Assembly: GCA_024195585.1 (NCBI GenBank) | Contig: SWBL01000057.1 | Location: forward strand, 62,001-126,000 | DNA: 64,000 nucleotides | Origin: Aureobasidium sp. EXF-3400 | Taxonomy: Eukaryota; Ascomycota; Dothideomycetes; Dothideales; Saccotheciaceae | Reading direction: 5' to 3' | In this document: positions 1 through 24,973 of the stretch, one piece after another | Numbering within the stretch: the first letter of the stretch is position 1 | Layout: each line of letters starts with the position of its first letter | The notes under the pieces: generated by a model | What the model saw: the letters and a program-made list of their open reading frames with translations, nothing else | Database searches by the model: none | Told to the model about the DNA's origin: nothing | Position numbers and translations under genes: made by a program

Positions 1-3000
1 TGCCGTCGCCCAATGTGGACGTGAGTATGAGTTCCCAAAAGTGTCGTTCAAACTTTGCTCACAGTCACTAGAGTATGCAGCTGTGGGACAACAGAACTGT
101 CCCCTGAACGTTTGCTGTTCTCAATTCGGATACTGCGGCACGACGTCCGATTTCTGCGGAACTGGCTGTCAGAATGGATGCTCTAAAGTGTCCGAACCGT
201 CTTGTGGTGGAAGCTCCAGCGACGCACGTAGGATTGGATACTACGAGTCTTGGAGTTATAGCCGCACATGTGATTCCTGGGTGCCGGAGAAGATTGACGC
301 ATCTCTTTGGACCCACCTCAACTATGCTTTTGCCTTGATTGATTCATCGGGCAAGATAGCCTCAATGAATGCTTACGACACACAGCTATATTCCCGGGTG
401 ACAGGTCTCAAGAAGTCGAATTCGGACCTGAAAGTCTTCATCTCTGTAGGAGGCTGGGCTGCTGGAGGTGCAGTCTTTTCGAAGATGGTAGCGACAACTT
501 CAACTCGAGCCACCTTCATCAACTCTGCTATTTCGTTCATGAACACATATGGATTTGATGGCCTGGACATTGATTGGGTAAACCGATCGACCAAATTTGT
601 CATCTTGTGCCACAGACTGACCATATCCAGGAATATCCTGTTGCTGGTGACCGTGGAGGTGCTAAGGCGGACTTCCAGAACTATGTTTCCTTCCTGAGAG
701 AATTGAGAGCAGCATGTGGAAGTAAATTTGGCATCACGCTTACTCTTCCATCTTCGTACTGTAAGTGACTGTTCTTTGTCGTGTGTATCTGGAGACTGCT
801 AACCATGAACAGGGTATCTGCAAGGCTTCGATGTTGTCAATCTAGAGCCATACGTGGATTGGGTACGTCAGGGTCGGATTATTCTTCGTGTCTGTGATTA
901 ACCCTTGTTAGTTCAATTTCATGTCCTATGACATCCATGGAACTTGGGATGGCACCAGTCCCTACACCAAGTCGATCGTGCAACCTCACACCAACCTCAC
1001 GGAGATCTCTCAAGGACTTGATCTCCTATGGCGTAACAACATCAAACCATCAAAGGTTGTCCTCGGATTGGGATTTTATGGACGTTCGTTCACTCTCAAG
1101 GATCCTTCTTGCAAGACTCCGGGTTGCGCCTTTAGTGGAGGAGGAAATCCAGGTAGCTGCACACAGACTTCTGGCATTCTCTCGAATGCAGAGATTCAAC
1201 GTATCATCACAGCAAAGAACTTGACGCCAATCTTGGATTCGCAAGCTGGGATCAAGTACATTACTTGGGACAATAACCAATGGTACGTGATATTTCGTGA
1301 TCAATGATTATCAATATGCATATCTCTAACCTTTTCTCAGGGTTTCCTACGACGACGAGCAGACTTTTACTCTCAAAAAGAACTTTGCCAATGGTCTGTG
1401 TCTGGGTGGCACGATGGTTTGGGCACTGGATCTCGACGACCCTAGTACACAGCAATCTGTCACCAATCTGAATGTAGATGGTCTTCGCTCCATTGGCGAC
1501 AATGTTGATCTCAATCCGGCCTTTGGTTCGCAAAAGATGCGAGCCATTCGGAAGCAGAACAACGTAAACTTGATTACCTTCTGGACGGATTGTATGAAAA
1601 GCCCCGTGTGCCCACCTGGCTTCAGGACTCTGACCACTGGACATGGTAAGGTAAGTTTTGCTTCTTACGAATCATACTATCGATTTATTGTCTGACAACC
1701 GGCCCACTTTCAGATATTCGATGCCGATCAGAGGACTGTCATGGCCGATGGATGTCATGGAGGCTGGAAAGGCTACAATCGCGCCCTTTGCGTCGAAAGC
1801 ACCGTTGAGATCCCCTCCAAGTCCTGCCATTGGGTTGGGAAAGCAGGTTCATGCAAGGAGCAATGTCCTCCCAACTCGATCCTAATCTCGCAGAACTCTC
1901 ATGTGGGGGATTATAGCTGTAACGAAGGAGCATACAAAAGCTATTGCTGCGACGCGATTTACTCTCGCAATATTCAAAACTGTCCAGGGACTAATGCTGG
2001 TAATGCACTCAGTGGAGGTCTTGCCCCTCGAGTAGCGGACGTCTCCAAGTTCCAGAACAAAGGAATCGGTAGCGGTAGCAATATCGGTACGGCGATGGAG
2101 TGTGCTGCAGAGGTGTTCCCTGGTGTCGCAGCGCTAGGCCTGACTGTGGCAGGGCTGTATAGTGAGTATCTGCATCTCTCATACAGCTTCCGAACTGACA
2201 CAACGCAGTCCTCAACTCGTTACCAGGCTACTGGCAATTAATCCAAGGCAGATATCAGTGGAGACCTCAACGTAACATTGTGTATCCGCAGCCGGCTCCA
2301 CAGACTTGCACCACCACGGTGACAAGCATTAGTGCGACTACTGTACTTGGCAATCTGATAACCAAGACATGCAGCGGGGACAAGTACCCAAATGCATGCG
2401 GCGCCTACAAATCCATCATCTCTCACGTCCAAGGAGCGGACACTTTGATTTGTCCCATATCAACCTACGCAGGCAACGATCGTCCCGCGCTAACACTCTG
2501 GAACAACCAGCACGCAGATGCGTGGCGTTTGTGGGTACCAAAGCTCCCGGGCTACAAATTCAATAAATGCGCAAGAGACGAATATCCTCCTTTTCGATTC
2601 CTCATTGGCGACATGAATTATGACTATCCACAATGGATTCGATTCCTGCCAGCTAGCGAGAATTCCGGAGCAGGACAAATCTGGAGGGGCGTGTGTAGCA
2701 GCAAGGCCAGAAGCTCGACGAATGTCCAAGGCGGACCCGCCAGCGATAAGACTTGCACCGAGATCAACCATATCACCTACACGGTGAATGCAATGACCAT
2801 GCTGTTTGCCAACATGCCTCCAACCAATGATGACGGTCTGGCCAATAACCCCTGTCTGCCAGTATGTGTGCAAGATCTGAAGCCTCGGAGAGAACAATGC
2901 TAACGATCGCAGATCATAACAGATGACGTAGGATTTGCGCTTTTCAACAATGATCCCTGGTATGGCTCTTCGCTCGGCAGAGGCAAAAACCAGTACGCAT

Positions 3001-3430
3001 ATAAGTATGATCCACTACCCGCCCTCACCAACGGCAGAACCGCACCGCGCAACTGGGGCAACATTGCGAAGCGCGAGCTGGATTTTGCCGACAACATGGG
3101 TCTGCCTGACGACATCGTCGTTGATGAGGGCAATATCACGCGTAAGGCAACTGATGAAGAGCTTCTCGAGGACTTTGGACTGTATAGATGCACCTCGGAG
3201 CATTGTGAGAAGGAGCGTGAAGCTTTGCAGATCCTTGGCGCGCGTCAACTGCCAGACAGCGTTCCTAGAACCAGAGTCCCTTCTGCCTTTGCAACAGTAT
3301 CGACTATGATGGTTTCCGCTCTCGACGTTGATGTGCACCGGCCGGCGGTGCAGACAGGTAAGGCTACTATGCCTTTAGAGTCTTCTGCTCTCCTAGGAGC
3401 GACTACACGTGCACAGCGTCACCTTCATAG
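1..3430 (+). CDS. GH18 chitinase with chitin-binding domain (5' end outside window)
   Basis: Secreted-type chitinase that hydrolyses chitin. The first visible exon (1-20) splices at 21-71 into a ChtBD1 hevein-like domain (CPLNVCCSQFGYCG, about 74-190). A GH18 barrel follows; its catalytic DGLDIDWE motif is completed only by removing intron 578-630. Further introns: 761-812, 863-911, 1283-1340, 1651-1713, 2162-2208 and 2862-2912; all keep frame. Barrel landmarks include MSYDIHG at 921 and the strand ending in MVWALDLDD near 1414-1440. After the barrel come two long Cys-rich segments (about 1714-3350), as in large subgroup C (killer-toxin-like) fungal chitinases, which often carry LysM domains upstream; that part would lie off the left edge. 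The last intron (3358-3416, stop at 3430) is my preferred model; without it the frame runs to 3455. Cell-wall remodelling or attack on other fungi are possible roles. Confidence 0.88.
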
Positions 3431-3991
3431 TCACATCCATAGGAGAGGACATTAAGGAGGGTTGGATCTACAGCGGAGACATGGCTTTGGAGTGATAGAC
3501 AAATACAAACACCCTCTTGTGCATTGAGGCTGTGAATAGTACTTACACTATTACCTTTCGTCGATCAAGCATTGATTTCTGGAAGAAGGTCCGCTTCAAA
3601 ACATTGTATTCACATGATCGTCGTTTTATAAGGCCTTGAGGATCTGAGGGTTATTATATGAAGGGCCAGAAAAGCGCGGGCTATACGTACTTGATTGACT
3701 TATTTATTCAATTACCCGTATCCAGTAGCTTCTGCCACACAAGCGGGATAGCTATGGTCTAAAAGGTTCTACCGTTCGCCCAACATTGACCGAGTTATGG
3801 CTAAAAATTATGGGCCATACGTAGAGTTTTGGCACGGTACTGTATATGCCAAGCCGCTAATCCAATTCACCGTGTGGGCGACGACGTGGCCACTGGCATC
3901 TGTCCTCTACGTCTTTTGTTTCGTGTCGGCTACCATCTCTATAGTACCGACATCCCATACATCATTACGCTCGTGCAGTTGGTCCCTTACA
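3431..3991. other. intergenic, nothing recognised
   Basis: Between the chitinase stop and the next gene I see no coding signal or RNA gene, apart from an in-frame extension of the downstream ORF to 3797 that looks unlike the conserved part of that protein. Confidence 0.4.
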
Positions 3992-5066: not shown

Positions 5067-5771
5067 TCAGTTTCGGACCCAGCAACCAGCTTGTCCAACA
5101 AATGTCTTGATAGCCATGTTTCTATAGTCTGGGCCTCTATCAGACATATCGATCAGAAACTGCGAACAATGCATAGTGTGATTGAAGCTTCCAATGATCG
5201 TATCTAGATGGGTCCGCTCCTCATAGAACGCGCGAAATTGTTTCCTCCAAAGCATGGCGCAGTGTACAATGTGGTCTCTCTCGGAAGTGTAATAGTAGTC
5301 CATCTCGGACATGGCGTTGATGTCTATCGTCTCTGTACGCTTCTCGTCCGCGAAGCCAAACCAGGATCCATCGCTCTGGTATTCCTCGACTGCCTTTCGG
5401 TCCATGCAAGGTGATGGTACCCAATGGTTGCTTAGGATATCATAGCGGCAACCCAGGCTTTTTGCTTCTGATATCGAATGGCCGCAGGTCAGAAGCTCCG
5501 CGTTCGAGGTAAAGTTACTTGACAGATCGAGAGTGTGGCTATAGGCCATTCGGTGATTCACTGCAGATTCGGAAGAGTTGATGACAGCCAGGGATCCCCA
5601 AAGGAGCGAAGTTGCGACGAAGACGGTGAAGTGAGAAAGCAGGAGCCAGGTTGAGAGACCGTCGAATGGCTTTTTATAGTAGACCCATCGTCCACTGAGA
5701 TTGAAACGATTTTTAGGAGTGATTTCAGCTGTATCATCCAAGAAGAGGTCATGCTCGTCGTCGGACAACAT
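5067..5771 (-). CDS. UstYa-like membrane protein with two HxxHC motifs (family B, copy 1)
   Basis: Single-exon protein of 234 residues. A cytosolic N-terminal tail of about 40 residues is followed by one transmembrane segment (about residues 42-66), N-glycosylation sequons (NFTS, NHTM), then the block CGHSISEAKSLGCRYD with two conserved cysteines and HWVPSPC. Near the C-terminus are HIVHCAMLWRK and HTMHC. Two HxxHC motifs behind a single TM segment is the layout of UstYa (DUF3328) oxidases of dikaritin clusters, but the CG..EA...GC block and the W(R/K)K after the first motif mark a separate family shared with the genes at 7789 and 14977. Inferred role: lumenal oxidative tailoring of the precursor peptide. 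It is the left-most gene I assign to the cluster. Confidence 0.7.
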   Translation of the reverse strand: MLSDDEHDLFLDDTAEITPKNRFNLSGRWVYYKKPFDGLSTWLLLSHFTVFVATSLLWGSLAVINSSESAVNHRMAYSHTLDLSSNFTSNAELLTCGHSISEAKSLGCRYDILSNHWVPSPCMDRKAVEEYQSDGSWFGFADEKRTETIDINAMSEMDYYYTSERDHIVHCAMLWRKQFRAFYEERTHLDTIIGSFNHTMHCSQFLIDMSDRGPDYRNMAIKTFVGQAGCWVRN

Positions 5772-6478
5772 GATGCAAGTCTCAACGGATGAGAGACCTG
5801 TCTCTGTTCTGAGAGTGGTATCGCGAAGAGCGATGTACTGAGATGGGGAGCTAAACTAGCTACTGAACTGGCAAAGTTGATCGTAAGAGGTTGCGACTCT
5901 TGTAATACGTAGATAGTCTCATGCAACTTGACACATCTTGTAAGAACTCACGTAAGCCATGACTTGTTGGATTCGTAAAGCGCATCGCTATTAGCTGGCC
6001 GATTTATCATTGCATCGATCACCGCACGTGCTAACGTGACATAATGCTTCTTTTGAGCACGACACCATTTTTCCAGAAGTGTTCCTGGAGCGAGATAGAG
6101 TGGCCTTATGGCTTTATCTGAGGTCCATGGAACTCGCATGCTTACCTGTGCTCTTCTACTCTTATGAGACATGGATCGTCCTTCAGATCTCCGATATGAA
6201 CATTAATTACTTCTAAAGGCTTTAACTTGATTGTCTGGACAGAGTCCTGCACTCGAGCATTGCTTGTTTCATCTGCTGGTAACAAAGTACGAAAGACGAT
6301 TTGGGATCATATGCAGCTCTCGGGCTCTCAAACAAGACTGGCTGTGAAGCAAGGGATCCTGATGTTGTTTGTTCCAAAATGAAGCCCGTCTCGACGAACT
6401 CAATCAGTCGAAAAGACGGACAGGGCGAAAGCGCATCGTCATGACGTCCATAAAGACTCTGCAAGACTGAAACCTTCC
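5772..6478. other. intergenic region, promoter of the 5067 gene
   Basis: Two minus-strand ORFs (5948-6172 and 6222-6464) are open but show no recognisable domain or splice continuity. I treat the stretch as promoter plus the 3' flank of the UstYa gene. It contains one copy of the CACGTAA-type motif. Confidence 0.4.
5947..5957 (+). promoter_or_regulatory. CACGTAA-type motif, copy 1
   Basis: Sequence CTCACGTAAGC about 176 bp upstream of the start codon of the minus-strand gene at 5067-5771. It matches motifs in the other cluster promoters (7604, 11849, 14751, 15965). Resembles fungal bZIP sites; function is inferred. Confidence 0.4.
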
Positions 6479-7477
6479 CTAGTCTACCACAAAAAGGCTA
6501 CCATTGTGGACTGCAGCGTGGTCATGGAAATGTGTACGCCTTGCTCTTGCCCAATCGTGAATCTTCTGAAAGTTTCTGCACGTATGCGGAGAAGACGGAC
6601 CCAGAATTACACGGTCGTTGACCTGCATCCACTTCATTGGAGTCAGGTCTGCGTGACACTGCAATGCTTGACGTATGTGGTTGATATAGTGACCTGAATT
6701 CGAAGTTAGCGGGTCTGGAAATCTCGGATGAATGAGTTGTTTCACCTATGTGGTCCTGCCGAGAAGGGTCTCCTGAGATATTGAAGATGGGATAGTACTC
6801 CGGGTATAGCGCCTGGCGAAGTCGATTCTGCGATTGTCAGTGATAATGGAGAAGGTTGATTGTGTTTGCGACTGACAAGGCAATGAAGAGAATGGAACAC
6901 ATCTAGACCTGTGAAGTAGGCACCTGAGTCTGGCCACTGGAATGATCCATCGAGTATGTCTGATCCTGGGTCTTCGAGATCCACATTGAGACCTGGTCTT
7001 CAGCTCAGTATAGATGACCATACTCTCGATATGCCAAAGCGACTCACCATTTAGGAGAGAACCCCAGGCGTAGTCGACAGATTTAGATGGCGGCCCCACG
7101 TATTCACTTCCTCTGAGGTCAGTTACGAATTCGTCATTCTCACTCAAGGTGATGCCTCCAGTGAAAGTGCAGTCTGTGAGTTCAATGGAGGGTCGAGCAG
7201 CGCCTAATTCAAGTCAGTCTGGAAGGTCATGGTAGATATGATCGTGTCTCGTCTCACTCAGATCCGTTTTGAAGCCGTTTTCATACGAATTCTGCTGCGG
7301 AACAGCCAGAGTCACTCGATCAAGAGCATACCATATGAGGAGGGTAAGGTTCAAGATCAGAGAAGCGTAACTCAGACAATGCAAAGGACTGAAGAAGCGT
7401 TCTCGTGGTGAGCGTCTCTTGGCTGACTGACCGAGTAGGGTCTCAGCTTCAACCTTCTCTATCTCTTTGGTCAACAT
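6479..7477 (-). CDS. UstYa family (DUF3328) oxidase 1
   Basis: Five exons on the minus strand (7477-7258, 7203-7048, 6992-6877, 6827-6746, 6693-6479) encode 262 residues. A basic N-terminus is followed by one TM segment (around SLILNLTLLIWYAL), then the DUF3328 body: VGPPSKSVDYAWGSLLNG, FHSLHCLNRLRQALYPEYY, then RQDHI and HYINHIRQALQC. The first HxxHC motif (HSLHC) is intact. The second, spanning the last intron, reads His-Ile-Gly-His-Tyr, so its Cys is replaced by Tyr, although the downstream RQAL.C is kept. UstYa proteins catalyse oxidative macrocyclisation and hydroxylation in dikaritin RiPP pathways and are thought to be anchored in the secretory pathway. Divergent from the gene at 7789 over about 310 bp, suggesting shared control. 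Confidence 0.85.
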
Positions 7478-7603
7478 GATTCCTCAATCGCAAAAAGCAG
7501 CACGCCACGAAAACGAGAGGCCAAGATTCTTTCCAGGAGTGTTTGACGAAAACTGCCACAGAACGTTGACAGGCGCTTGGAGAATGCTGACTCACTTGTA
7601 AAC

Positions 7604-7614
7604 ATGACGTAAGG
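7604..7614 (+). promoter_or_regulatory. CACGTAA-type motif, copy 2 (variant)
   Basis: Sequence ATGACGTAAGG in the divergent promoter between the UstYa gene (start 7477, minus) and the family B gene (start 7789, plus). TGACGTAA is a bZIP-like core. Confidence 0.35.
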
Positions 7615-7788
7615 CCATTAGCATAGTCAGGACAATATACATTGGGCGGAGTGATGTCCTTCGCCCAGGTCACCGAGCCTAACGTAATACCTCAGATCCT
7701 TGACGAGTATACTACCATATCCAACACGCAAAAGCTAGTAGTTGATATGTATACTCGTATTTCTGCGAAAGCAGCAACAGAACCAACG

Positions 7789-8539
7789 ATGGGCTCGTTC
7801 GCCTCGAAAACTGTCAACACGTTTACTCTATTGCCCTCAACTGATGCTTCACGCGACCTAAGCAGTAAAGAACAACTCATCCAGTCCGAACACAATGACG
7901 CAACCTCACTATCAAAGTCGACAGACCCAATACGAGCCTCAAGGTCTAGAATGCTGCTCTTGGGCGTGTTGATGAATGCAGGAATACTCCTCGCGGGATT
8001 TGTCACAATCTGGGTCTTGAACACCAGTCCATCGACCAACATTCGAGAAATGACCTTGACTGAGGATGGCAAATCATTTCCCGTCGATTGGTTGACTTGG
8101 TCACCACACCCATCAGCCTCTACCATGTGGCAAAACTCCAACTGAAGCGCTAGCTCGAGGCTGTCATTTCGATGTTATAGCCACAGCCTGGCTACCTTCT
8201 CGTTGTATCGACGATAACTTGATCGCCGAGTTTGAGTTATTTCACCCCTGGCAGTACTTCCACGACCAGAACGGAACGCAGCCCATATCCAACACACCAG
8301 ATGAGCTGGGTACGACGACGGGACTCATCTGGACGACACATAGATGGCACGCAGCGCATTGCTTGTTCATGTGGAAGAAGTTGAACCGGGCTTTGCTACA
8401 AGGGCGTTGGACCGATGGTGAAACAATAAAGCAGAGTCACACTGATCATTGTTCAGTGAGTATCATGGATTCGATCGCGAAGGGCGAGAATCCGGACGAG
8501 ATTGGTGCCCTGTTGGAGGTCATATATCCGCCATGTTGA
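7789..8539 (+). pseudogene. UstYa-like membrane protein (family B, copy 2), apparent frameshift
   Basis: The N-terminal part (start chosen at 7789, MGSFASK; ATGs at 7642 and 7747 are in frame) has a TM segment (MLLLGVLMNAGILLAGFVTI) and reads to a stop at 8143-8145. The conserved part continues one frame over from about 8117-8126: CGKTPTEALARGCHFD, WLPSRC, HAAHCLFMWKK and HTDHC, to the stop at 8537-8539. These are the same blocks, in the same order, as in the genes at 5067 and 14977. I find no intron of credible size that joins the two frames (the nearest donor and acceptor would give about 34 bp). Thus it is either frameshifted or contains a sequence error near 8115-8130. If intact it would be about 250 residues. 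Confidence 0.6.
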
Positions 8540-8985
8540 TTCCTAAGCAAGCATATCTGATTTAGAAAACAAGTCATGAAAAATTCAAGTGTTGGACATG
8601 TCCGCTCATGATCGTGTGGTCCTTTGACTATGGAATGAGTCTGACCTTAGAGATAACCAGTCACAGTGTCGATGATGTTTGACCATCGGCTCACAACTTG
8701 CTTTGTGTGCTCCCTTCATGATTATGCTTAGTGCAGTGATCTAATCAGCTTACAGATGCATTAGACATGTACATCAGTCAGTCTTCGACTCACCTCATGT
8801 ACTGACTCGTCCAGACATATTTGTTTTGCACTGCGCTGTGTGCCATGACAGCGATATTGGCGTCCTCGAGGTCAATATCGATATGCGTCCAGCGCCACAT
8901 GTTGGCACAGTAATGCAAGCGCCACTTGCATACAACATAACGTCTGTCATATCGCTGTTCTGAGTCAAGCTCGATATCTGACGTA
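8540..8985. other. intergenic, nothing recognised
   Basis: No coding signal that I can defend; the stretch leads into an ankyrin-like remnant. A faint ankyrin-like reading may begin near 8815. Confidence 0.35.
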
Positions 8986-9342
8986 TTGGAGCCTGTGAGA
9001 CTGAAGATTTACAGATTGTCGGTCTGTTTGTACGCATATTTCTTTGGGTATCGCTATCATGCAGTGTCCTTGGCTTATATACCGAGATGGAAGTTCCGAT
9101 GTTGTGTGTCCCTAGAAGCTCTCCCTGTCGAGCGTGATGCAACCAACTACATGGGCTGTACGGCACTTTTTCTAGCCGTTGAGGCCAAGCACGAGGGGAC
9201 AGTGCAAGAGCTTCTCAAGTCCTCTGCAAGCCTGAATCTCAAAGATCTGCTGGGTAACTCTCCACTGCATCTAGCGGTCGAAAGCGGATTGGAGTCAATG
9301 ACACTTCTTCTTTTGGCACACGGTGCAGACATCAATGAGTGA
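8986..9342 (+). pseudogene. ankyrin-repeat remnant
   Basis: About 65 residues near the end of this ORF form two ankyrin repeats (GCTALFLAVEAKHEGTVQEL and GNSPLHLAVESGLESMTLLL, then HGADINE), ending in a stop at 9340-9342. There is no matching upstream protein of normal size and no TM or NACHT partner nearby. It looks like a fragment of a large ankyrin protein stranded between the RiPP genes, overlapping nothing but lying only about 80 bp from the end of the M3 peptidase gene. It may be transcribed, but I infer no function. Confidence 0.45.
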
Positions 9343-9423
9343 GATGGTTTTGCCAGGAAGAGATCAGAAGGAAATTTGCGGTGGCCAAACTCGACTCCAG
9401 TGGTCCGGTTTTCGACAAATATG

Positions 9424-11707
9424 TCAAATTGTTATCCCAAGCTCGTCATGGAAAGCATGCGCATTAGGTTTTCGCCCAAGAAACTCGGTCAACAGAGACA
9501 TCTCATCCACACTACCACCCTTTTCCAGAACACTCCGACGGTATCTTATTCCCACTTCACGGCTCATGGGGTCTGCACTGAACGCAGTTGAGAACATGTC
9601 TGATGCGTATACTCTCGAACTATCCTGTGTGATCAGCAGTGTACCGGGTGGGGGAGCTGAGTGGCCTTGAGTAGACTTACTAGAGATAGCCGTAGTAACT
9701 CGCATCATACCCTCCAATCAGATGTGAGAAATGCGCTTGCCCATGACCCCATTCTTCATCCTCAGGCTGATCAAGTCCAACAATCTGTCCTTGTAATCTG
9801 TTGAACTCACACGTGATGTTCATGTTCTCTAACGTCATTCTGTCCGGTGGGTTGTGGACCTTCATATCAAAGACACTTCGCCACAAGGCGCGCATGTTAG
9901 TCAGAGACGCATTCACGTTTTCGCTTCGGATCAATCCTTCGAGTAGCTCGGTCGAGATCTCCCTCGGCGGATCTGGGTCTGCTGTGCATCCATGAGTTCT
10001 CCAATAATCATGGTACTCTGGCGTCAGCGTTGAGTAGTGGTGGCTCAAAGCCTTGAGCTGAGGTTCTCTCCAGCACCATCTCTCGAGCATTTGGCTCGGG
10101 GCCTCACAGAAATCGTCCGCCGTGGCAGTGCCGTGGAAACGAGAGTACTTGGTCTTGGCCACGAGATCATGAATGCCATGACCAAGCTCATGGAAAATGA
10201 GACTCACGTCGCTATGTTGGAGTAGACTAGGTTTGTCGAGGGTCGGTTTCTCAAAGTTGCAGATTAGGGCTGTACTTGGGAAGTGGCGTGAACCGTCGGG
10301 CTTAATATATCCCTGTACTTGATCAGCAGTTGTTCCGCGGTCCAGCATGTTGAGATTGCATACCGGTTGTAAGTTGAAGTTAGCAGCGCTGCCATATTTT
10401 CCCTCGCGATCGTACAGATCTAGGTACAAGAAGCCCAGGAAGCTTCCACCTATATCATCGCTGTCCCAAACATCAAATACCCGTACGTCCTCGTGCCAAA
10501 TCTGGTTCAGGACTTTGAGGTTGCTTGTATCGCCTGAGACTTCTCGAAATACTAGACCAAAGACCTTCTCGAAGTTATTCAACATTGCTGGTACGACCGT
10601 CTGAATCGGAAAGTATTCTGCGATTCTCTTTTGGTCCACCGCGTATTGCGTTTCGAGCATCAGTCGATGATAGAAAGAGATGTCCCAGACATAGAACTTT
10701 CCGTCAAAGTCGATTCCCTGGCCTGCCAGATGATCCGATTTGAGCTGCTTCAGAGCATTGAGGTCGGACTGTAGACCTGACTGAAGTTGAGATCTCAGAT
10801 CGCCCAGGAATATATTCACATGCTCTGGGGTCCCCGCCATCAGTCCCTCAGTACGCCACTCAGCATGACTAGCGTAATCAAGCATACGAGCGGCTTCGTC
10901 ACGAAGAAGCACCATCTCTCGAAACAAGGGCACATTGTTTGCGCACCGGTTCTCGAACCCGGTCATATAGCGCTTCCGAGCCTCGGCTGACTGTGCGTAC
11001 CTCATAGTTGGGTAGAAATGACTTGGTTGGAATGTGAGACGGAAGACTTCTTCGTTTTCATCGGAGCCATGATCAGGCATAGCACTTTGCAGAACGTGTG
11101 AAGGCGCCCCAACCAGGTCTTGCGCTGTGAAGTCGACATATTCGTTCTCTTCATTCATGTTCCTACGGAATTCGCTTGTGATTGTGTTGATCCGAGTCTT
11201 GATCTCGTTAAACCTGTCGCGAGCAGCCGCCGGAAGACCAAGTCCGTTGTCGTAGAAAGTGCGATGCTCTTTGCGGAGCAATCGCTCGGACTCACTATCC
11301 AAAGCCTCGTTTCTTTTGACCACGGAATCGATGATCACAAACAAGTCTTCTCGCATGGCAATTTCGGAATTGAAGTTGTCAAGGAGCAGGTTGGATTTGC
11401 TCGACTCATCTCGTAGACTGATATCGCTCGAGACCTCTTTGTAGAAACTCAAAAGTCCAGCTTCAGCGGCGATGTTGTTTCGGCAATGGGCCAGTGGTAA
11501 AAGCACATTTTCGAAGTTGGCTGATTCCAGAGATGTTTGCGCGACAATCTGGTCAAGCGCCTGGCGTGATGTTTCGATGAGCTGCGTCGTACGGTCCGCA
11601 ATAGACTTCGCTGTGGTCACGAAGAGTGCCCTTGCTTGAGGCGGCGATTTTGTCTTTGAAGCTTTCGTTCCAGACATACTTCGTCCCAGGTTCTTTTTCT
11701 CGTACAT
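9424..11707 (-). CDS. M3 family zinc oligopeptidase
   Basis: Two exons (11707-9681 and 9619-9424) encode 740 residues; MSGTKASKTK at 11677 is an equally good start (730 residues). It has the length and architecture of thimet-oligopeptidase-like M3A enzymes, with zinc motif HELGH (FHELGHGIHDL) and the downstream Glu ligand in FCEAPSQMLE. The typical GGYDASYYGYL segment runs across the intron into YASDMFSTAF, EKGGS and FLGRKPN at the C-terminus. No signal peptide is visible, so it is probably cytosolic or mitochondrial. M3 enzymes cut short unfolded peptides; within this cluster it is a candidate for trimming precursor fragments. From memory an oligopeptidase of this kind is annotated in the phomopsin cluster. 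It is divergent from the tyrosinase gene across about 360 bp. A housekeeping role is also possible. Confidence 0.88.
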
Positions 11708-11805
11708 CGCTGATGCGCGGGTTCTTGGCTCTTGTTGTATCCATCACCAGATAGCACAGACGCCCGTGCCGATGATACGCTACGTAGAGTGATTGATAAT
11801 AGCAC

Positions 11806-11858
11806 ATCACGTGATCAAGGACTCTTCTGCGGCATCAAGTATTCTGCATCACGTAATG
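11806..11858. promoter_or_regulatory. divergent promoter with E-box palindrome and CACGTAA-type motif
   Basis: Between the M3 peptidase (start 11707, minus) and the tyrosinase (start 12067, plus). ATCACGTGAT at 11806-11815 is a perfect 10-bp palindrome, and TCACGTAATG at 11849-11858 is identical to the copy upstream of the precursor gene at 15965. Such a pair could bind bZIP or bHLH regulators and coordinate both genes. Confidence 0.4.
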
Positions 11859-12066
11859 AACTTCGCGTCAGTCATCATAGCACCAGATTTGCTGACTACG
11901 ACTCCAGGAAGTCTGAGTAGATGATCGTCTGCATCACTAATGTCCACCAACGCGATAGACGGAACAGACGGGCACACAACCATGGCCTCGTCATGATCAC
12001 TATCCTTTGTTGCTTCGATCGTCCAAGAAATTCCGCAGACATTGTTCAATCTTCTCATTTGATGAT

Positions 12067-13331
12067 ATGGGAGTAATACAGAGCTCTCCGGTCTACGAAC
12101 AGGTTGACATCGATGAGGACCTCGATCGTGATAACAACAAAAAGCAGAGGCAGGCGTTGGGCAAGCTCCGCATGTCAATCATCCCGATACTCGTGGTCAT
12201 CCTCTGTTTAGCGGCCGGTTGGATGGCTGGTATGTTCAGTAAGACGTTAACAGCGTATCCAAGGTGCAAAAATCTACACGTCTGTCGAGAATGGCGAAGT
12301 CTGAGTACTCCAGAGAAAGATCATTACATCCAGGCAGTAAGATGTCTGCTATCGAAGTCATCTATCACGAGGCCAAATGGAGTGCTCTATGATGATTATC
12401 CATACACTCATGCACGCGTTGGTGGATATTGTAAGAACTTTTATCAGCGCCCAAAGATATCGCCGGACTATTGGTACAAGCTCATAACGCCGCTCCTTTC
12501 CTGCCATGGCATCGTTACTTTCTTCACATCTACGAGACAAATCTTCGAACTTATTGTGATTACAAGGGAACTCTGCCGTAAGAAACCCAGATGATAATCA
12601 TTCATTGTTCTCTTGTTGACACGAGCAACAGTTATTGGGATTGGGCACTTGATTGGTAAGATCTGTTGAAGTTACAACCAGAATCTTGTCTGACGAATTG
12701 CAGGGAATCTCTGCGTGACTCCCCTGTGTTCTCCAATACAACTGGCTTTGGTGGTGATGGGAACATGGAAGGTCCAGAATCTGTTGGTGACGGTCACTGC
12801 GTCACTGACGGTCCCTTCGCCGATCTCATGTTGCCGTTCTACAACTCAGACGATCATGACCACTGCCTCTCGCGAGCCTTTGCTGATGGAAAAACGCGAG
12901 GCATATTACCTGGTGACCAAGTCAGACCTGCCGTGATTGAGGAGATCCTATCACAAACCGACTACAAAGGTTTCTTCTTGCAGCTCGAGAAAGGCCCACA
13001 CAACCAGATCCCAAACGGTATTGGAAGCGAATTTCTGAAGTTTACTGCTCCTAACGATCCCCTCTTCTTCTTACATCACGGGTAACTCTCATCATGCTGA
13101 ATTACAAGAATTGGACTAATCTTTCTTGTTAGACAACTAGACCGTCTTTGGTGGATGTGGCAGAGGGCCAACCCTGAGGCTCGAAAACGCGATTATGGAG
13201 GAATCTCAAGGCATGCCTCCAAAGTCCCGGCATCTCTGCAAGACGCTATTCCAATGGGCAATCTATCTTCTGCTATACGAGTGATCGACATGATGGACAC
13301 TGAGACAGGATTGCTTTGTTATACCTATTGA
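12067..13331 (+). CDS. UstQ-like tyrosinase
   Basis: Five exons (12067-12430, 12481-12577, 12632-12655, 12704-13081, 13133-13331) give 353 residues. An N-terminal anchor (IIPILVVILCLAAGWMAGMF) precedes the catalytic domain: CREWRSLSTPEKDHYIQAV, a CuA region with His residues in THARVGGY and SHNAAPFLPWHRYFLH, PYWDWALDW, and a CuB region with GPHNQIPNGIG, FTAPNDPLFFLHH and QLDRLWWMWQ. The C-terminus ends GLLCYTY, as in this fungal subfamily. The membrane anchor and short size match UstQ-type enzymes of dikaritin clusters, which oxidise Tyr or cooperate with UstYa proteins in cyclisation. In CuB the His expected four residues after the first is Pro (HNQIP), which deserves a check. It lies between the M3 peptidase and the second UstYa gene. 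Confidence 0.87.
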
Positions 13332-13541
13332 GCAGCTATGTACAGTGAGTAGGAACGCTGAAGATACTCTTATTTCTATTCTGCTTGCCAGAACCATAAG
13401 TTGATGACATCTGCAGATCATACAGCCTATTTATGAGGCTGATGGTATAACTAGTGCTGTAACAATGATAGATCCTATACTAGTGTACAACTCTGTCCAG
13501 TACAGCAACTCCAAAGTCCTTGCGCATGTTTCCGGACTTCT

Positions 13542-14638
13542 TTAGTGGCCAGTTGCCCGAAGCCGCTCTGCGTTTCCATAGAGGGTATCTGGATCAGCGG
13601 CATCTCGATCCCTCGACCATGATCTCAGACTGTCATAGTCACGACACGTGTGAACGGTCTCAAATTCAGGAACAATCCAGCCGCGGTTAATCGACCATTT
13701 GATCGGGATCAGTGTCATATCACCATTGCACATGAGACTCAGCCGAAGTGCATCGAGACAGTGTTCTGGAAGTATTGTCAGCTTCTGGAGGATACTTTCT
13801 GATACCCAGACGCTTGCAAGTCATACCGACGTGGGACGGTAGTGTCCAGTCCTGAAGCTTTGGGTAGTATTCTGGGTACATGGACTTTCGGATGAGGTTC
13901 TATGGGGATGAAGGTAAGTGCTTGCGAGCAGTTGTCAAGTACGCGTCTACTCACGATACAATGAAGGTTGTGGAACACAGATACCCTGGCAAGAATACTG
14001 GTGAGTATGATTATTCGGCTCAATCATAGGAGTGTCGCTCACTGTGCCATGTGCAAGCCTGTCTCCGGGTCGAGCCAAAGATCATTACCAAGCAGATGTT
14101 CCTCTTTCGGGGTCACGAACACATTCACGGCTGTCCTCAGGTCAGCAAAGGATCTGAGATAGGCTTACAAGAACTTACCTCCCAGCAGTCCTTTCCATGC
14201 TGCGTCGATATCCGGAGTAGGTAGTCCAACATAAGCTGGAGTAGTGATAGGACGGTACACCTGATGACTCTCGTTGTACTTCAGTGTTGCGTCGAAACGA
14301 ATTTGCTTGGACACTGCAGGAATTTCGTCGGTGGCACTCTCTGGAAAGTTATAGATGTCTTAGCGTTTCTCACTCATGAAGTTCTCCAGACAATCTCACG
14401 CACTAAATTCACTGGCTCTCCAATATCCATCGATGCACCTTTCCGTAGCAGACATCGTAACCGTTATCCCGAGCGCAATTGCCAACACCAAGCATAGAAG
14501 CCACGGCAAGATCAGTAGCCAGGCCCTTCGCATCCGGCCAGTCCCTCGATCGCGACGGATTGGAGCCGCAAGGGGCTGACTATCTTCAAGGAGTGCTTGC
14601 TCGGATTCGAGCCCATCGTCAATAGTTTCGTCTTTCAT
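13542..14638 (-). CDS. UstYa family (DUF3328) oxidase 2
   Basis: Six exons (14638-14404, 14340-14179, 14130-14043, 13985-13955, 13899-13827, 13765-13542) encode 270 residues. The N-terminus has a TM segment (WLLILPWLLCLVLAIALGIT), then the DUF3328 body: AYVGLPTPDIDAAWKGLLG, VFHNLHCI with the first HxxHC, NLIRKSMYPEYYPKL, then HVEHCLDALRLSLMC with the second HxxHC, and DMTLIPIKW. Both catalytic-type motifs are intact, unlike in the UstYa gene at 6479. It faces the tyrosinase tail to tail (210 bp) and is divergent from the family B gene at 14977 (338 bp). Predicted role: oxidative cross-linking of the Tyr-containing core peptides in the secretory pathway. The large number of small exons is usual for the family. 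Confidence 0.87.
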
Positions 14639-14750
14639 CCGGTCTCATACGTGTAGCTGACCAAAATCAGAAACATGTCGAATAACAAATGCGATATCCA
14701 TCAGGACTTGGCAGAAAATTGAACTCATGGTTGGGGAACGTTACGAATGG

Positions 14751-14761
14751 TCCACGTAAGT
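14751..14761 (+). promoter_or_regulatory. CACGTAA-type motif, copy 4
   Basis: Sequence TCCACGTAAGT in the divergent promoter between the second UstYa gene (start 14638, minus) and the family B gene (start 14977, plus). Confidence 0.38.
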
Positions 14762-14976
14762 CGCACAACTCCAAGTCGGATTACCACATGCCTTGGCAAA
14801 CACACAGTAATGAAATACTCCTTCTCTTTTCAACAAGAAATGTATGCAGTCAGCCGAGTCATTGACTAATTTCACGAGATTGATATCATGATTAACGCTT
14901 GACTTACTAACCAGTTCAGAAATCTCAGAGTTTGCACCAGGACCTCATCCGCGAAAACCTCCTATCAATTACAATC

Positions 14977-15681
14977 ATGGCCTTCATGCAGTTCCCAATC
15001 CGCTGGACCTGGTCTTACACTAAAGTCCCGACCGATACTGAGGTCCGCGACCATCCTGACCCTCAGGACGAATGTACCAAGAACGACTTCAGTGCTCTCG
15101 ACCAACCGCCAAAGCAACGCACTATTCGCGCAAACAGATCTCTCAGTGTTGTGGTCCTCAGTATCATCGTCACGTCAGGGCTAGCTTTTGTCATCTTCAT
15201 ATCTGTGCTTGCATCCAAGAAGGCACAGCGGAACACTGTGGCTCAAGAAAGCACAGTGTTGTGTGGAAATTCGTCGGCGGAGGCTCTTTCTCGAGGATGT
15301 ACCTGGGACCAGTTGACTTGGGCCTGGCTGCCTCCAAACTGTTTACACTATGCGAACGACGAGTTCGTACGAGCAGGAAACTGGAAATTCTATACTGATC
15401 CGCTCGGCAAGCAAGAGGCTGTTGGGACTGCCTGGACAGAGGGATTGGATAACAAGGTTGCACTATGGGGGCAACGAGGAGAACATCTCACACATTGCAT
15501 CTACATGTTTCTCAGTCTGGGTCAGATAATCAGGGATGGAACGCCATACCACCAGAAGCTTACTAGCTACCAACATGTCCATCACTGTTCTGAGATACTC
15601 TTGGAGGCGTTGCGGCAAGATCTCAATTGGGACAAGGTGGAGACTTCCACAGGAAAGGTGTCGTACAACGAGCATTGTTAA
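14977..15681 (+). CDS. UstYa-like membrane protein with two HxxHC motifs (family B, copy 3)
   Basis: Single exon, 234 residues from the first ATG at 14977 (MAFMQFPIRW). A polar N-terminal tail of about 55 residues is followed by a TM segment (LSVVVLSIIVTSGLAFVIFI), then CGNSSAEALSRGCTWD, WLPPNC, HLTHCIYMF and HVHHCSEILL. These are the conserved blocks of the genes at 5067 and 7789, with both HxxHC motifs present. This copy lacks the W(R/K)K that follows the first motif in the other two (here MFLSL). Predicted type II orientation puts the His/Cys motifs in the secretory lumen, where the precursor would be. It is the gene immediately upstream of the precursor, same strand, 354 bp apart. Confidence 0.72.
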   Translation: MAFMQFPIRWTWSYTKVPTDTEVRDHPDPQDECTKNDFSALDQPPKQRTIRANRSLSVVVLSIIVTSGLAFVIFISVLASKKAQRNTVAQESTVLCGNSSAEALSRGCTWDQLTWAWLPPNCLHYANDEFVRAGNWKFYTDPLGKQEAVGTAWTEGLDNKVALWGQRGEHLTHCIYMFLSLGQIIRDGTPYHQKLTSYQHVHHCSEILLEALRQDLNWDKVETSTGKVSYNEHC

Positions 15682-15964
15682 GCCTGGGGTCAAGCGTCGA
15701 GTGTTGGTCCTCAGTCTTGGCCAGATATAGAGAGATCACCCGTATACCATGTTGTTCCACTTTCTGCATGAGCCAAAAAGAAAGATCAGTTCGTTGTGTT
15801 ACCACGGTGTGGGTTTTAGTAAGACCTGAGTCCGGACTAGCCACTTTACAGTGACCCATGACAATTACATGGAGCTATGTGCTCATTATTCCCAGTATTC
15901 TCATAGAGAGTAATCAGCACATGTGACTGGTCCATCACCTCACTTACATACTGCATGGAATGAC

Positions 15965-15974
15965 TCACGTAATG
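15965..15974 (+). promoter_or_regulatory. CACGTAA-type motif, copy 5 (precursor promoter)
   Basis: TCACGTAATG about 60-70 bp before the precursor start codon at 16035; identical over 10 bp to the copy at 11849-11858 in the M3 peptidase/tyrosinase promoter. Confidence 0.42.
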
Positions 15975-16034
15975 TCGGTATCCTCATCAGACGTGGGCTA
16001 GGATGTGTCAGCTACAAGTAGATTATCCACGATC

Positions 16035-16373
16035 ATGCGTTCACCTTTCACCGTTCTAGCTCTGGCCAGCATGGCTGTAGCTGCTTTACCCATAATCGAG
16101 CCCGTCGAGAGTCAGTATCGCTTTACTCTGCTTCATATAACGATTACTCTAACTTCATGTCTAGACATTGCCGTACGCAGCCCTGAGCCTCAACGTAATG
16201 CTCAAGCCGACTACTACGTCAAACGCGAGCCTCAGCGCAACGCTCAAGCCGATTACTACAAGCGCGATCCCCAGCGCAACGCTCAAGCCGATTACTACAA
16301 GCGTGATCTCCAGCGTAATGCTCAGGCCGATTACTACAAGCGCGAGTCTGAGAGCGATGCTCAAGCCGAGTGA
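16035..16373 (+). CDS. RiPP precursor peptide, dikaritin (UstA-like) type
   Basis: Two exons (16035-16110, 16165-16373) encode 94 residues; the 54-bp intron is a multiple of three and free of stops, so the unspliced frame also stays open. The first residues form a clear signal peptide (FTVLALASMAVAAL). After a short spacer come four repeats of 13-14 residues, each ending in Lys-Arg, the Kex2 cleavage signal; the last residues of each repeat are ADYY-KR (ADYYV-KR in the first). The tail ESESDAQAE keeps the acidic stem but has lost the Tyr pair and the Lys-Arg. UstA-type precursors have this plan: signal peptide, tandem repeats, core just before KR. The core is therefore probably centred on Asp-Tyr-Tyr, four copies per precursor. 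The Tyr pair is suited to the ether or C-C links made in dikaritins. No known product with this core is familiar to me. The UstYa, tyrosinase and peptidase genes within 10 kb support the call. Confidence 0.85.
   Translation: MRSPFTVLALASMAVAALPIIEPVESQYRFTLLHITITLTSCLDIAVRSPEPQRNAQADYYVKREPQRNAQADYYKRDPQRNAQADYYKRDLQRNAQADYYKRESESDAQAE
16185..16343 (+). repeat. four tandem core repeats in the RiPP precursor
   Basis: Units at 16185-16226 (42 bp, extra Val codon), 16227-16265, 16266-16304 and 16305-16343 (39 bp each). All end in a Lys/Arg pair and contain RNAQADYY. Units 2 and 3 are nearly identical in DNA; units 1 and 4 differ at several synonymous third positions, so the array is not a very recent expansion. 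Confidence 0.9.
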
Positions 16374-21873: not shown

Positions 21874-24296
21874 CTACTTAGCAAAGTGCAAATCGTAGTT
21901 CAACCACTTCCTCGCCTGCACCTGCTCAATACTCAACCCAGGCTGCCCATAAGTCAAAGGAGCAAAGTACAAGAAACTCCACACCACAACAGCAAGAATA
22001 CCTCCAGTAGCAGCCCACATACCCAGCAAATTAGACTGCAGAGTTCTCTCACGAACAGGCTTGTTTTGCTGCACAGCAGTCTTTTTGTTCTTGGTGATGG
22101 TGGCATTGCCAGAGGCCACGTCGTCGAGGTCGACGGGGTCGATGTTGAAGACGAATTCGACGAGGGCGCCGGTCACGAGGGCGGAGGCGAGGTGGGCGGG
22201 GAGGTAGTGGTGGAGGAAGAGTTGGCGGCCCATGATGTAGAAGGGGATGTAATGGGCGGCCCAGGTGAGGAAGAAGAAACCGGTTGAGTTGTAGAGACGA
22301 TTGCGGGCGCCTGAGATGTGTTAGTCTGGGGTGAGTAGTGGAAGAAGGATTGAACATACGCTTGTCAAGGGCATCCACACCACGACGCTGGGAGAGCTGG
22401 TCGGCGAGAAGGACACCGGCAAAGACAGCGAGCAAACTGCTGGCCAACCACCAACCTACGGGGTTACCGAGGAAGTAGATCTGCTGGCGAGTCTCGTTCT
22501 CGGTCCAGAAGCTGACACCACGAAGGAGGAAAGGCCACTGAATGGGAACACTGGCGTAAGGGTGGCTGCTGGTGAGGGCGTTGTTGTGGTAGAACATGGC
22601 GCGCTGGAGCTCAAAGTATTTCTTGAGGAAAGGCACGTGCTTGACCTTGCGAGGCTCCTTCTTTGCGCGCTCCGAGTCCTTGGGAAGAGCGGGAATGTCC
22701 TCGGCGTACCAGATGTTGCTGGTCTGGAGGGCATTCTTGTTTCCGTTGATCTCAGCTTGCTTGTAAGCCCATTCAGGCAGAGGAGTGGTGTGAGTCCACA
22801 TGGCGACCTTTGTGGGAACGTGGACAAGCTTAAATTGAACAGACATGGTCTTGAGGTCCATGCCAGCCTTTGCGCCATCCACTCTGATTTCGAAGAGGGT
22901 GTCGTTGAAGCGCTCGCCATTGGCATCGTCGTGGGGAACAGTGGTGAACTCCTGGTTGGTGGGGTAGTAAGGGGAGGCAACATCGTGGGTGAGGAGCCAA
23001 GTGTCGGTCACGAGATGGCGAAGACGAACAATATCACCGACGTGGACGCGGTGGCCGGTCTCTTCGGGGATGGCACCAGTGCCGGGAATAATCTGCCAGA
23101 GGTTGTTGGTGTCGTTGTGAGGGTAACCAGTGACCTGCTGACCCTGAGAAGAGACACGGCCGTCGTCGTAACGCAGAGGGTATCTGTCGGGGTGACTGTG
23201 GAGGTAGACCTTGGTGTCCTTGTGGCGGATGTTGATAGCATCATAGTAGTCGATGCTGACGGCTTGCTGGGTCATGATGTTGTCGCTGAGAGTCTCTTGG
23301 AACTCGGGGCTCATGAAGTCGTCACCAGGGCCGGAACGGTTAAGAATGGCAAAGTGGACCTGGAACCAGAAGAGGTAGAGCATGAAGGGGATGACAATTA
23401 GACCAGTGACGCGAGCAGCCAAGTGCTTGCCGAACTCGGGCAGACTGAGGGCGCCCTGTCTGCGGTTGATGTCGAGAAGAGACCAGAGGTCAATGGCGAC
23501 TGGGACACCGATGGAGAAGAAGGTGAAGGCACCGACATACTTGGTCGAGATAACACAGCTGAGGCAGACACCAGTCAAGAGCAGCCACTTCCACCACTTG
23601 CGGCTGAAGGGGACGTGACGGAGCTTGTAGAAGCGGACGTAGCTCCAGACTGAGAGAGCCATGAACAGGATGAGAGTGGCGTCGAGGAGGATGAGTCTGG
23701 TTTGGCCAATGTGGGCGTTGTCGAAAAGAACGAGACCGGCAGCCAGAACACAGGCAGGCAGAGAGTAGCCAGACTCCCACATGATCATGAAGACGACCGA
23801 GACGGTCAAGGCGCCCATCGAGGCAGGCATTGCGCGGTATGCCACGTAGGGCACCTTGTTTGTAATGTACGAGTCGCCAATGTTCTCAAACAGAAACTCG
23901 CCATTGTAGCCAACCAGCCAGCCTGCGAAAGCGAACAGGAGCTTGCCGAACGGAGGGTGCACATCGAAGAAGTAGGTACGTTGGAGGTAGTAGGATGCGA
24001 ACTGGCCCCTGTTAGCGATTGGCACTTGATCGTGGATGGTGTACAAATCTCACCTTGCCGAAGTGGACTTCATCAAAGACGACCTGGTTGGGGTGTGTGA
24101 TGGCGTAGAAACGGGTCGCAAAAGCGAGGAGGGTGATGACAGCGAGAGCAAGCTTGTAGTCCCAGTCATTCGAGGCGGCCTGCTTGGTCTGACCCTTGAG
24201 CTGAGAGAGGTATTCGCTGGTCTGGTCAACAGCACCATCGACCTTCTTTTTGGTGCTGGCCGCTGGCCCCTTCTTGGAGCTCGGCGTCAAAGACAT
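21874..24296 (-). CDS. pmt4: dolichyl-phosphate-mannose protein O-mannosyltransferase, PMT4-like
   Basis: Three exons (24296-24054, 24001-22360, 22310-21874) encode 773 residues. PMT catalytic landmarks: VVFDEVHFGK at the first lumenal loop, FDVHPPFGKLL, then alternating TM segments. The central lumenal MIR region contains KVYLHSHPDRYPLRYDDG, QQVTGYPHNDTNN and VRLRHLVTDTWLLTHD. The C-terminal TM half includes YNSTGFFFLTWAAHYIPFY. It transfers mannose from dolichyl phosphate to Ser/Thr of secretory proteins in the ER. Assignment to the PMT4 rather than PMT1 branch rests on my memory of the loop-1 and MIR sequences. A highly unbroken antisense frame exists over this gene and is a codon-usage shadow. 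The gene is divergent from the oxygenase at 24974. Confidence 0.9.
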
Positions 24297-24973
24297 GATG
24301 CAAGTTTAATGAGAGTCGAGAAAAGTGCTTGTAGATCAGAAACAAAGCATCACCCACACACAAGGCTGATGAACAGAGATGTCGAGGGATGAAGAAGAAA
24401 TCCAGCCAGACAATGGACAGCTGTCGCAACGACTCTCGACCGAGCTGCTACGAATTCACGACGCAATTGTTCCTGAGCTTGGGCCATTGCAGCTTCACAG
24501 GTACCTTTGACCCCTTTTCCTCATGCCTCCTCGAGCCCCTTTCCTGTGTCCAGCTCCCTTCAGCTAAATTTCGCCACGCTATATACATCTGCAGTTCAAC
24601 GCCATGGTACGAAAATCATGTCCGTCATGAGCACAAAAATAGAGCTCCCACAAGGTTGGTCCAAATTGCCCACGAGGGTGCCCAAGCTCTTCCCCGCATC
24701 CACTTCGTCTGTCGCCTGTTAATCATACCATTGACTAACCCGCCCTCTACCTGATTGATACTGGCTGTTTCTTGCAGACTTTGTGCCCGCTGTTTGTCTG
24801 TCTGTCACGCTTCCACTTTCCATATCTGTCTGCGACTCGTTGTGCCCGAGTCATCAGATAGGTCCCGCCCGTCGGCTTCGTTGGATGTTATCGTTATCCA
24901 CTGCCGAGAGCAAAATATATATACTTCTACCATACCTCACCAACCATATTCCATACTTATTGGGTTATACAAC
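24297..24973. promoter_or_regulatory. divergent promoter, PMT4 / 2OG oxygenase
   Basis: 677 bp between two start codons pointing away from each other. It contains a pyrimidine-rich stretch (about 24480-24560) and AAAATATATATAC at about 24910 before the oxygenase start. No coding signal that I accept. Confidence 0.5.

What the first reader, a model, noticed from the sequence alone, without database searches (positions are those of the whole stretch)
5067..16373. Probable undescribed dikaritin-type RiPP cluster
Seen: a secreted precursor with four KR-bounded repeats, two DUF3328 (UstYa) proteins with HxxHC motifs, a membrane-anchored tyrosinase, an M3 peptidase and three members of a second membrane family with two HxxHC motifs, all within 11.3 kb. 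Known: UstA-type precursor plus UstYa plus tyrosinase is the signature of ustiloxin, asperipin and phomopsin-like pathways. Inferred: this cluster makes a Tyr-Tyr-containing cyclic peptide that I cannot match to a known product. Differences from ustiloxin: no S41 peptidase, P450, flavin monooxygenase or methyltransferase was seen here.
Basis: partly seen in the sequence, partly recalled or inferred. Interest (0 to 1): 0.92.

Follow-up and report, generated by a model that had tools for sequence, protein, structure and literature searches.

The report
Fungal copper-oxidase peptide (RiPP) gene cluster
This stretch of a fungal genome looks like a gene cluster that makes a small, chemically cross-linked peptide, and it carries an unannotated family of membrane proteins with the same metal-binding motif as the known peptide-cyclising copper enzymes.

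Summary
Between 5067 and 16373 lie a secreted Kex2-repeat precursor (four xxQRNAQADYY units), two UstYa (DUF3328, PF11807) proteins, a tyrosinase, an M3 peptidase and three members of a second membrane family with two HxxHC motifs each. "Dikaritin-like RiPP cluster" is well supported, but such clusters are not rare: one survey counts 1758 precursors beside DUF3328 genes.

The more interesting part is the second family. All six copies found in the 53-Mb genome (query F5) lie within 1.8 kb of a UstYa match, at three loci that each hold a different repeat precursor. F5- and F14-types are spread over many filamentous ascomycetes: of 120 listed homologues 119 keep both motifs and none has a Pfam domain; the two types share a contig in eight cases. 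DUF3328 uses HxxHC(x)nHxxHC to bind two coppers (CctR paper), so these are best read as further luminal copper oxidases or UstYa partners.

Cautions: Y6 lacks the second-motif Cys, F7 needs an unusual intron or is frameshifted, the tyrosinase lacks one CuB His, homology of the second family to UstYa is unproven, and expression and product are unknown.

The parts
16035..16373 (+). PRE, secreted Kex2-repeat precursor, 94 aa if the 54-nt intron 16111-16164 is spliced (112 aa, same frame, if not)
   Evidence: three homologues in unnamed environmental sequence
13542..14638 (-). Y13, UstYa (DUF3328) protein, 5 introns, HNLHC and HVEHC
   Evidence: PF11807 6.9e-40; relatives
6479..7477 (-). Y6, UstYa (DUF3328) protein, 4 introns, HSLHC and HIGHY (second-motif Cys absent)
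   Evidence: PF11807 4.2e-35; relatives
5067..5771 (-). F5, second-family membrane protein, HIVHC and HTMHC
   Evidence: AF2 model
7789..8539 (+). F7, second-family membrane protein, HAAHC and HTDHC; needs an unusual intron (34 nt, 8083-8116, used here) or is frameshifted
   Evidence: PF11807 1.1e-5, 25.8 bits against cut-off 25
14977..15681 (+). F14, second-family membrane protein, HLTHC and HVHHC
   Evidence: no Pfam match
12067..13331 (+). TYR, membrane-anchored tyrosinase-like protein, 353 aa, 4 introns; His 115, 123, 132 and 261, 286/287 present, Pro265 in place of the second CuB His
9424..11707 (-). M3, peptidase family M3, 740 aa, 1 intron (9620-9680)
   Evidence: PF01432 5.7e-120; matches on seven other contigs of the genome, best 49% identity

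Best explanation
A dikaritin-like fungal RiPP cluster. Shown from sequence: the precursor has a signal-like N-terminus and four KR-bounded units; the UstYa proteins, the tyrosinase and the second-family proteins each have one N-terminal hydrophobic segment (weakest in F5). Inferred: the precursor enters the ER/Golgi, Kex2 cuts after KR, and trimming leaves peptides such as EPQRNAQADYY. Inferred: Y13 (perhaps with Y6), together with the tyrosinase, oxidises and probably cross-links the conserved R-N-x-x-A-[D/N]-Y-Y end with O2 and a binuclear copper site, as UstYa enzymes do. Inferred, the new part: F5 and F14 (and F7 if intact) are further copper oxidases, or obligate partners of UstYa, acting on the same peptide through their own HxxHC(x)nHxxHC site. 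M3 would act only on peptide in the cytosol; its role is weak.
For: Gene set and motifs. Six of six second-family matches of the genome lie 768-1,710 bp from a UstYa match and 0.4-10.3 kb from a repeat precursor, at three loci. Of 120 listed homologues 119 have both motifs. F5- and F14-types share a contig in eight cases, in four with locus tags two apart; Y6- or Y13-types share contigs with F5- or F14-types in eight named fungi. In a relative, precursor P0123 and F14-type P0001 come from contigs of the same length, 4,845 bases. F5 model: both HxxHC at the N-ends of two adjacent helices, as in a UstYa model. HxxHC(x)nHxxHC binds two coppers in CctR (PMC12435403).
Against: Homology of the second family to UstYa is not shown by profiles. 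Y6, F7 and TYR each show a change that may impair them. No transporter or transcription factor was found in the cluster itself. TYR and M3 were not tested for conservation in the other fungi. The three second-family genes outnumber what known clusters need. No expression or product data.
Confidence: 0.62

Rival explanations
1. It is a RiPP cluster, but the second family is not catalytic: it is a scaffold, copper chaperone or electron-transfer partner for UstYa.
For: Always near UstYa in this genome. The CctR authors suggest an unknown accessory protein that delivers electrons or Cu(I) (PMC12435403).
Against: The complete double motif is kept in 119 of 120 listed homologues, which suits an active site. 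At least two distinct types are conserved side by side.
Confidence: 0.15
2. The cluster is decaying in this genome and makes no finished product.
For: Y6 HIGHY and F7 frame problem, tyrosinase without one CuB His, an ankyrin fragment inside the cluster. An environmental F14-type relative, P0001, also has only one HxxHC.
Against: PRE repeats differ mainly by synonymous changes; F5, F14, Y13 and M3 are intact and conserved. The tyrosinase change may be usual in its subfamily (not tested).
Confidence: 0.15
3. PRE is an unmodified Kex2-processed secreted peptide (pheromone or repellent-like) beside unrelated oxidase genes.
For: Most surveyed KEPs have no DUF3328 neighbour: 1758 of 7878 do (PMC7329392 section 7).
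Against: Two UstYa, three second-family genes and a tyrosinase within 11.3 kb. Mating-factor and pheromone KEPs lack DUF3328 neighbours with three exceptions. Three other precursor loci of this genome also sit beside UstYa, though that scan looked only near UstYa.
Confidence: 0.05

Closest known systems
Ustiloxin B cluster (ustA, ustQ, ustYa, ustYb) and phomopsin cluster (phomA, phomQ, DUF3328 genes)
   Same: Signal peptide plus KR-bounded repeat precursor, two UstYa-type proteins, a tyrosinase.
   Different: Core ADYY/NAQADYY instead of YAIG or YVIPID; no methyltransferase, S41 peptidase, P450 or flavin monooxygenase among the eight cluster genes; an M3 peptidase and three second-family genes instead. 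Cluster contents of the known systems from passages of PMC6514808.
Asperipin-2a cluster (aprA, aprY)
   Same: Repeat precursor with a Tyr-rich core and a UstYa-type cyclase.
   Different: Asperipin needs one UstYa and no tyrosinase is listed for its cluster (passages of PMC6514808); here two UstYa, a tyrosinase and the second family.
CctR, ApnU and AprY, binuclear copper DUF3328 enzymes
   Same: Single membrane anchor, luminal domain, HxxHC(x)nHxxHC (PMC12435403, whole main text; ApnU and AprY only as reported there).
   Different: F5/F14 types are not recognised by PF11807 at its cut-off (best F5-type 4.4e-4; E<=0.1 in 8 of 34 and 3 of 30 members) and carry a CG..A...GC..W.P..C module of their own.

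Membership tests
Kex2-processed repeat protein (KEP) | signal peptide and highly repeated core sequences with Kex2 sites | tested here: met
   (signal peptide by hydrophobicity only)
Dikaritin cluster | DUF3328 (UstYa) genes beside the precursor | tested here: met
   PF11807 in Y13 and Y6
Dikaritin cluster | tyrosinase (UstQ/PhomQ-like) | tested here: inconclusive
   PF00264 7.2e-40 but Pro265 at the second CuB His; no UstQ sequence was at hand to compare
Dikaritin cluster | PhomM-like methyltransferase, S41 peptidase, PhomR-like regulator | tested here: not met
   absent from Pfam results of the eight cluster genes; the stretch 16.4-22 kb was not scanned with Pfam
Dikaritin cluster | side-chain macrocycle on Tyr | not testable with these tools
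   no product data
UstYa family PF11807 (F7) | Pfam cut-off of 25 bits | tested here: met
   25.8 bits, 1.1e-5, with a gene model that is itself uncertain
UstYa family PF11807 (F5, F14) | Pfam cut-off of 25 bits | tested here: not met
   F5 12 bits, F14 no match
UstYa superfamily (second family as a whole) | remote homology by profile or fold | tested here: inconclusive
   hhalign 7.7%, 3.1% and 10%, no separation from reversed decoys; similar order of predicted elements, models not superposed
Binuclear copper enzyme (second family) | HxxHC(x)nHxxHC in a membrane-anchored luminal domain | tested here: met
   motif in 119 of 120 homologues; anchors (F5 hydrophobicity peak 1.59, just under the 1.6 cut, but an AF2 helix at 39-67); topology inferred
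Binuclear copper enzyme (second family) | binds two coppers and uses O2 | not testable with these tools
   needs protein

The most novel reading that the evidence does not exclude
F5- and F14-type proteins are a second, Pfam-invisible family of membrane-anchored binuclear copper oxidases, convergent with or extremely diverged from UstYa, that work as a conserved pair with UstYa in a RiPP pathway spread over many filamentous ascomycetes.
Probability: 0.45. Interest if true: 0.78.

Novelty: new variant of a known kind. Interest (0 to 1): 0.6.

Why it matters
DUF3328 proteins were shown to be copper enzymes only in 2025. A second conserved family with the same motif, next to UstYa in every copy found here and often paired in other fungi, would enlarge the set of enzymes that modify unactivated bonds in peptides. 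It would give genome mining a new handle, since these proteins carry no Pfam domain, and offers a testable answer to how UstYa obtains a partner, copper or electrons.

Tried and rejected
Homology of the second family to UstYa by profiles: A3-A6 and A4-A6 and profiles of 126 and 122 sequences with reversed decoys gave no separation from the decoys. Hints only: F7 1.1e-5 and 8 of 34 F5-type members at E<=0.1, best 4.4e-4. F14-type: 3 of 30, best 0.032. The three C111/C331 members gave no UstYa match.

DNA of orthologous clusters: genome contigs (F5-type) and viral contigs (F5- and F14-type) gave no relative, so the precursors of the other fungi could not be read. The F14-type was not scanned in genome contigs.

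Repeat-precursor scan: six segments passed; reported are C342, C111, C331 and the window. Dropped: an arginine-rich C159 segment (two pairs) and a C342 segment antisense to the reported one. The scan covered only the fetched stretches round the UstYa matches, the window and 20 kb to its left, not the whole genome.

M3 as the housekeeping copy: matches on seven other contigs, so this is an extra copy, but a cytosolic protein is hard to place in a luminal pathway. Tyrosinase matches on eight other contigs, none on C111, C331 or C342.

Literature: the core letters occur only in unrelated papers (8 of 8 listed). Searches showed no title or abstract naming the second family; only some of the listed papers were opened. 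The victorin and phomopsin cluster papers and the ApnU paper are not held and supplements could not be opened, so a description there is possible. I have an unverified recollection, from no call, that InterPro/PANTHER hold an entry for such proteins under a phomopsin-biosynthesis name.

One search failed by a script error; one search failed by a frame error (rerun with corrected coordinates as 101).
Full report
WHAT IS THERE. The window is C57:62001-126000 of a 53.4-Mb genome of 717 contigs, fungal by its genes. Gene models were built by hand from open frames and introns. In order: F5 (minus, 5067-5771), Y6 (minus, 6479-7477), F7 (plus, 7789-8539), M3 (minus, 9424-11707), TYR (plus, 12067-13331), Y13 (minus, 13542-14638), F14 (plus, 14977-15681), PRE (plus, 16035-16373). 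Pfam: Y13 and Y6 are UstYa (6.9e-40, 4.2e-35), TYR is a tyrosinase (7.2e-40), M3 a peptidase M3 (5.7e-120). F14 has no match, F5 12 bits and F7 25.8 bits to UstYa (cut-off 25).

BORDERS. To the left lies a GH18 chitinase with a chitin-binding domain, to the right a protein O-mannosyltransferase at 22052-24049. An ankyrin fragment lies between F7 and M3. The stretch 16.4-22 kb was not scanned with Pfam.

THE PRECURSOR. PRE has a hydrophobic N-terminus and four units, EPQRNAQADYYVKR, EPQRNAQADYYKR, DPQRNAQADYYKR and DLQRNAQADYYKR, with a short tail. The array scores 217 in TRF, its like does not arise in 20 Markov-1 resamples, and over ten codons the six pairs of copies differ by 1-5 synonymous and 0-2 non-synonymous bases. 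Three homologues among 35 candidates, all from unnamed environmental sequence, keep R-N-x-x-A-[D/N]-Y-Y. One of them, P0123, and P0001, 86% identical to F14, come from contigs of the same length, 4,845 bases, and the same source, which suggests the F14-PRE adjacency seen here.

THE SECOND FAMILY IN THIS GENOME. F5, F7, F14 and three further proteins of the genome share CG, GC, W.P..C, W, two HxxHC and a late C. A genome search with F5 scored seven candidates and gave six matches: three here, one on C111, two on C331. They lie 768-1,710 bp from a UstYa match and 0.4-10.3 kb from a repeat precursor. The C111 precursor has (D/N)(P/L)KVEYAENYDIKL units, the C331 one GDDEEGVNWIKR units. A fourth precursor, on C342 (SSADEATAYVVDKR), has UstYa matches but no second-family match. 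UstYa matches (21, exon by exon) occur on 11 contigs, so most UstYa loci lack the family. Only F5 was used as query; distant members may be missed.

THE FAMILY ELSEWHERE. A profile of the six found 143 proteins at E<=0.001 among 1650 candidates; 120 are listed. Of these 78 are nearest to F5, 42 to F14, none to F7 or the C111/C331 members; 119 have two HxxHC (P0001 has one), and none has a precomputed Pfam domain. Named sources include Aspergillus, Colletotrichum, Hirsutella, Metarhizium, Trichoderma, Lepraria, Hypoxylon, Coleophoma and Zymoseptoria; one is labelled an archaeon (P0064), probably a contaminant. In four the locus tags are two apart (A. tanneri, C. camelliae, C. destructivum, H. 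rhossiliensis); three are on contigs of at most 35.1 kb. The gene between was not identified. The UstYa search (220 hits, 120 listed, only the 7996 best candidates scored) split into 68 Y6-type, 19 Y13-type and 33 ambiguous. Y6- or Y13-types share contigs with F5- or F14-types in A. tamarii, Echria (all four types), Hypoxylon sp. EC38, H. rhossiliensis, Coleophoma (tags 08130 and 08132), Massarina, Cercophora and Sphaceloma. On the large contigs the distance is unknown. Conservation of TYR and M3 was not tested.

RELATION TO UstYa. F5- and F14-types are homologous to each other (hhalign 98.3%). A relation to UstYa is not shown by profiles. The F5 model (mean pLDDT 80.5; block means 85-97 from residue 91) has a membrane helix at 39-67 and both HxxHC at the N-ends of helices 164-183 and 196-212. 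A Y13-type UstYa, P0127 (pLDDT 75.3), has them at the N-ends of helices 131-146 and 159-175, with a similar order of elements. This is suggestive only: the coordinates could not be superposed.

MECHANISM. CctR binds two coppers, with HxxHC(x)nHxxHC as the site, is a membrane-anchored dimer and needs O2 and electrons; its His and Cys alanine mutants are inactive (PMC12435403, whole main text). In ustiloxin, UstQ, UstYa and UstYb are all needed for the first cyclic intermediate (PMC6514808 passages). By analogy, Y13 and TYR would oxidise the ADYY end in the secretory lumen; the second family would be further copper oxidases or partners. Every chemical step here is inferred.

WEAK POINTS. Y6 reads HIGHY where 65 of 68 Y6-type relatives align Cys; two align Tyr and one Ser. 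A halogenase paper notes that the two Cys probably form a disulfide and do not bind metal (PMC12871659 passages), so the loss need not abolish copper binding, while CctR Cys mutants were inactive. F7 needs one of six unusual introns or is frameshifted. TYR has HNQIP where hemocyanins have HNxxH; of four paralogue stretches fetched, two show HxxxH and two do not cover the place. Whether UstQ and PhomQ share the change was not tested. The cluster may therefore be partly degraded, or may depend on Y13, F5 and F14.

KNOWN OR NEW. Umemura found 7878 KEPs, 1758 with DUF3328 neighbours, and a tyrosinase peak near those (PMC7329392, outline and sections 6 and 7). So the cluster is a member of a populous kind. 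The lichen survey reports HxxHC in signature genes found by antiSMASH (PMC12048977, outline and sections 11 and 22). Searching for two HxxHC motifs has been proposed to flag copper enzymes (PMC12871659 passages) and would catch F5 and F14 without setting them apart. The listings of searches showed no paper on the second family, but key papers are not held.

VERDICT. Observation confirmed with corrections, interpretation partly supported, new variant of a known kind. The second family is the part worth following.

Noticed in passing
L015 6328-8908 and L016 1811-2584 (C111:10327-16583): A second UstYa/repeat-precursor cluster with (D/N)(P/L)KVEYAENYDIKL units, one second-family gene, a serine carboxypeptidase (S10), an ABC transporter and a Tri3-like acyltransferase nearby.
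   Followed up: partly
L017-L018 (C331:36460-46227): A third cluster with GDDEEGVNWIKR units (Trp, no Tyr), a UstYa gene between two second-family genes, and an ABC transporter.
   Followed up: partly
L021 8808-9341 (C342): A repeat precursor with SSADEATAYVVDKR units near UstYa matches, reminiscent (from recall) of phomopsin-type cores; no second-family match.
   Followed up: no
window 1-3455: GH18 chitinase-like gene with a chitin-binding domain, spliced, cut by the window start.
   Followed up: no
window 24755-25987 and 30556-31431: A 2OG-Fe(II) oxygenase and an ABC-2 transporter segment to the right of the mannosyltransferase; probably not part of the cluster.
   Followed up: no
window 8986-9342: Ankyrin-repeat fragment inside the cluster, probably a remnant gene.
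   Followed up: no
P0001 (environmental F14-type protein): The only one of 120 listed second-family homologues without two HxxHC (second motif HVDLC), in a close relative; with Y6 this may point to relaxed constraint in this lineage.
   Followed up: no
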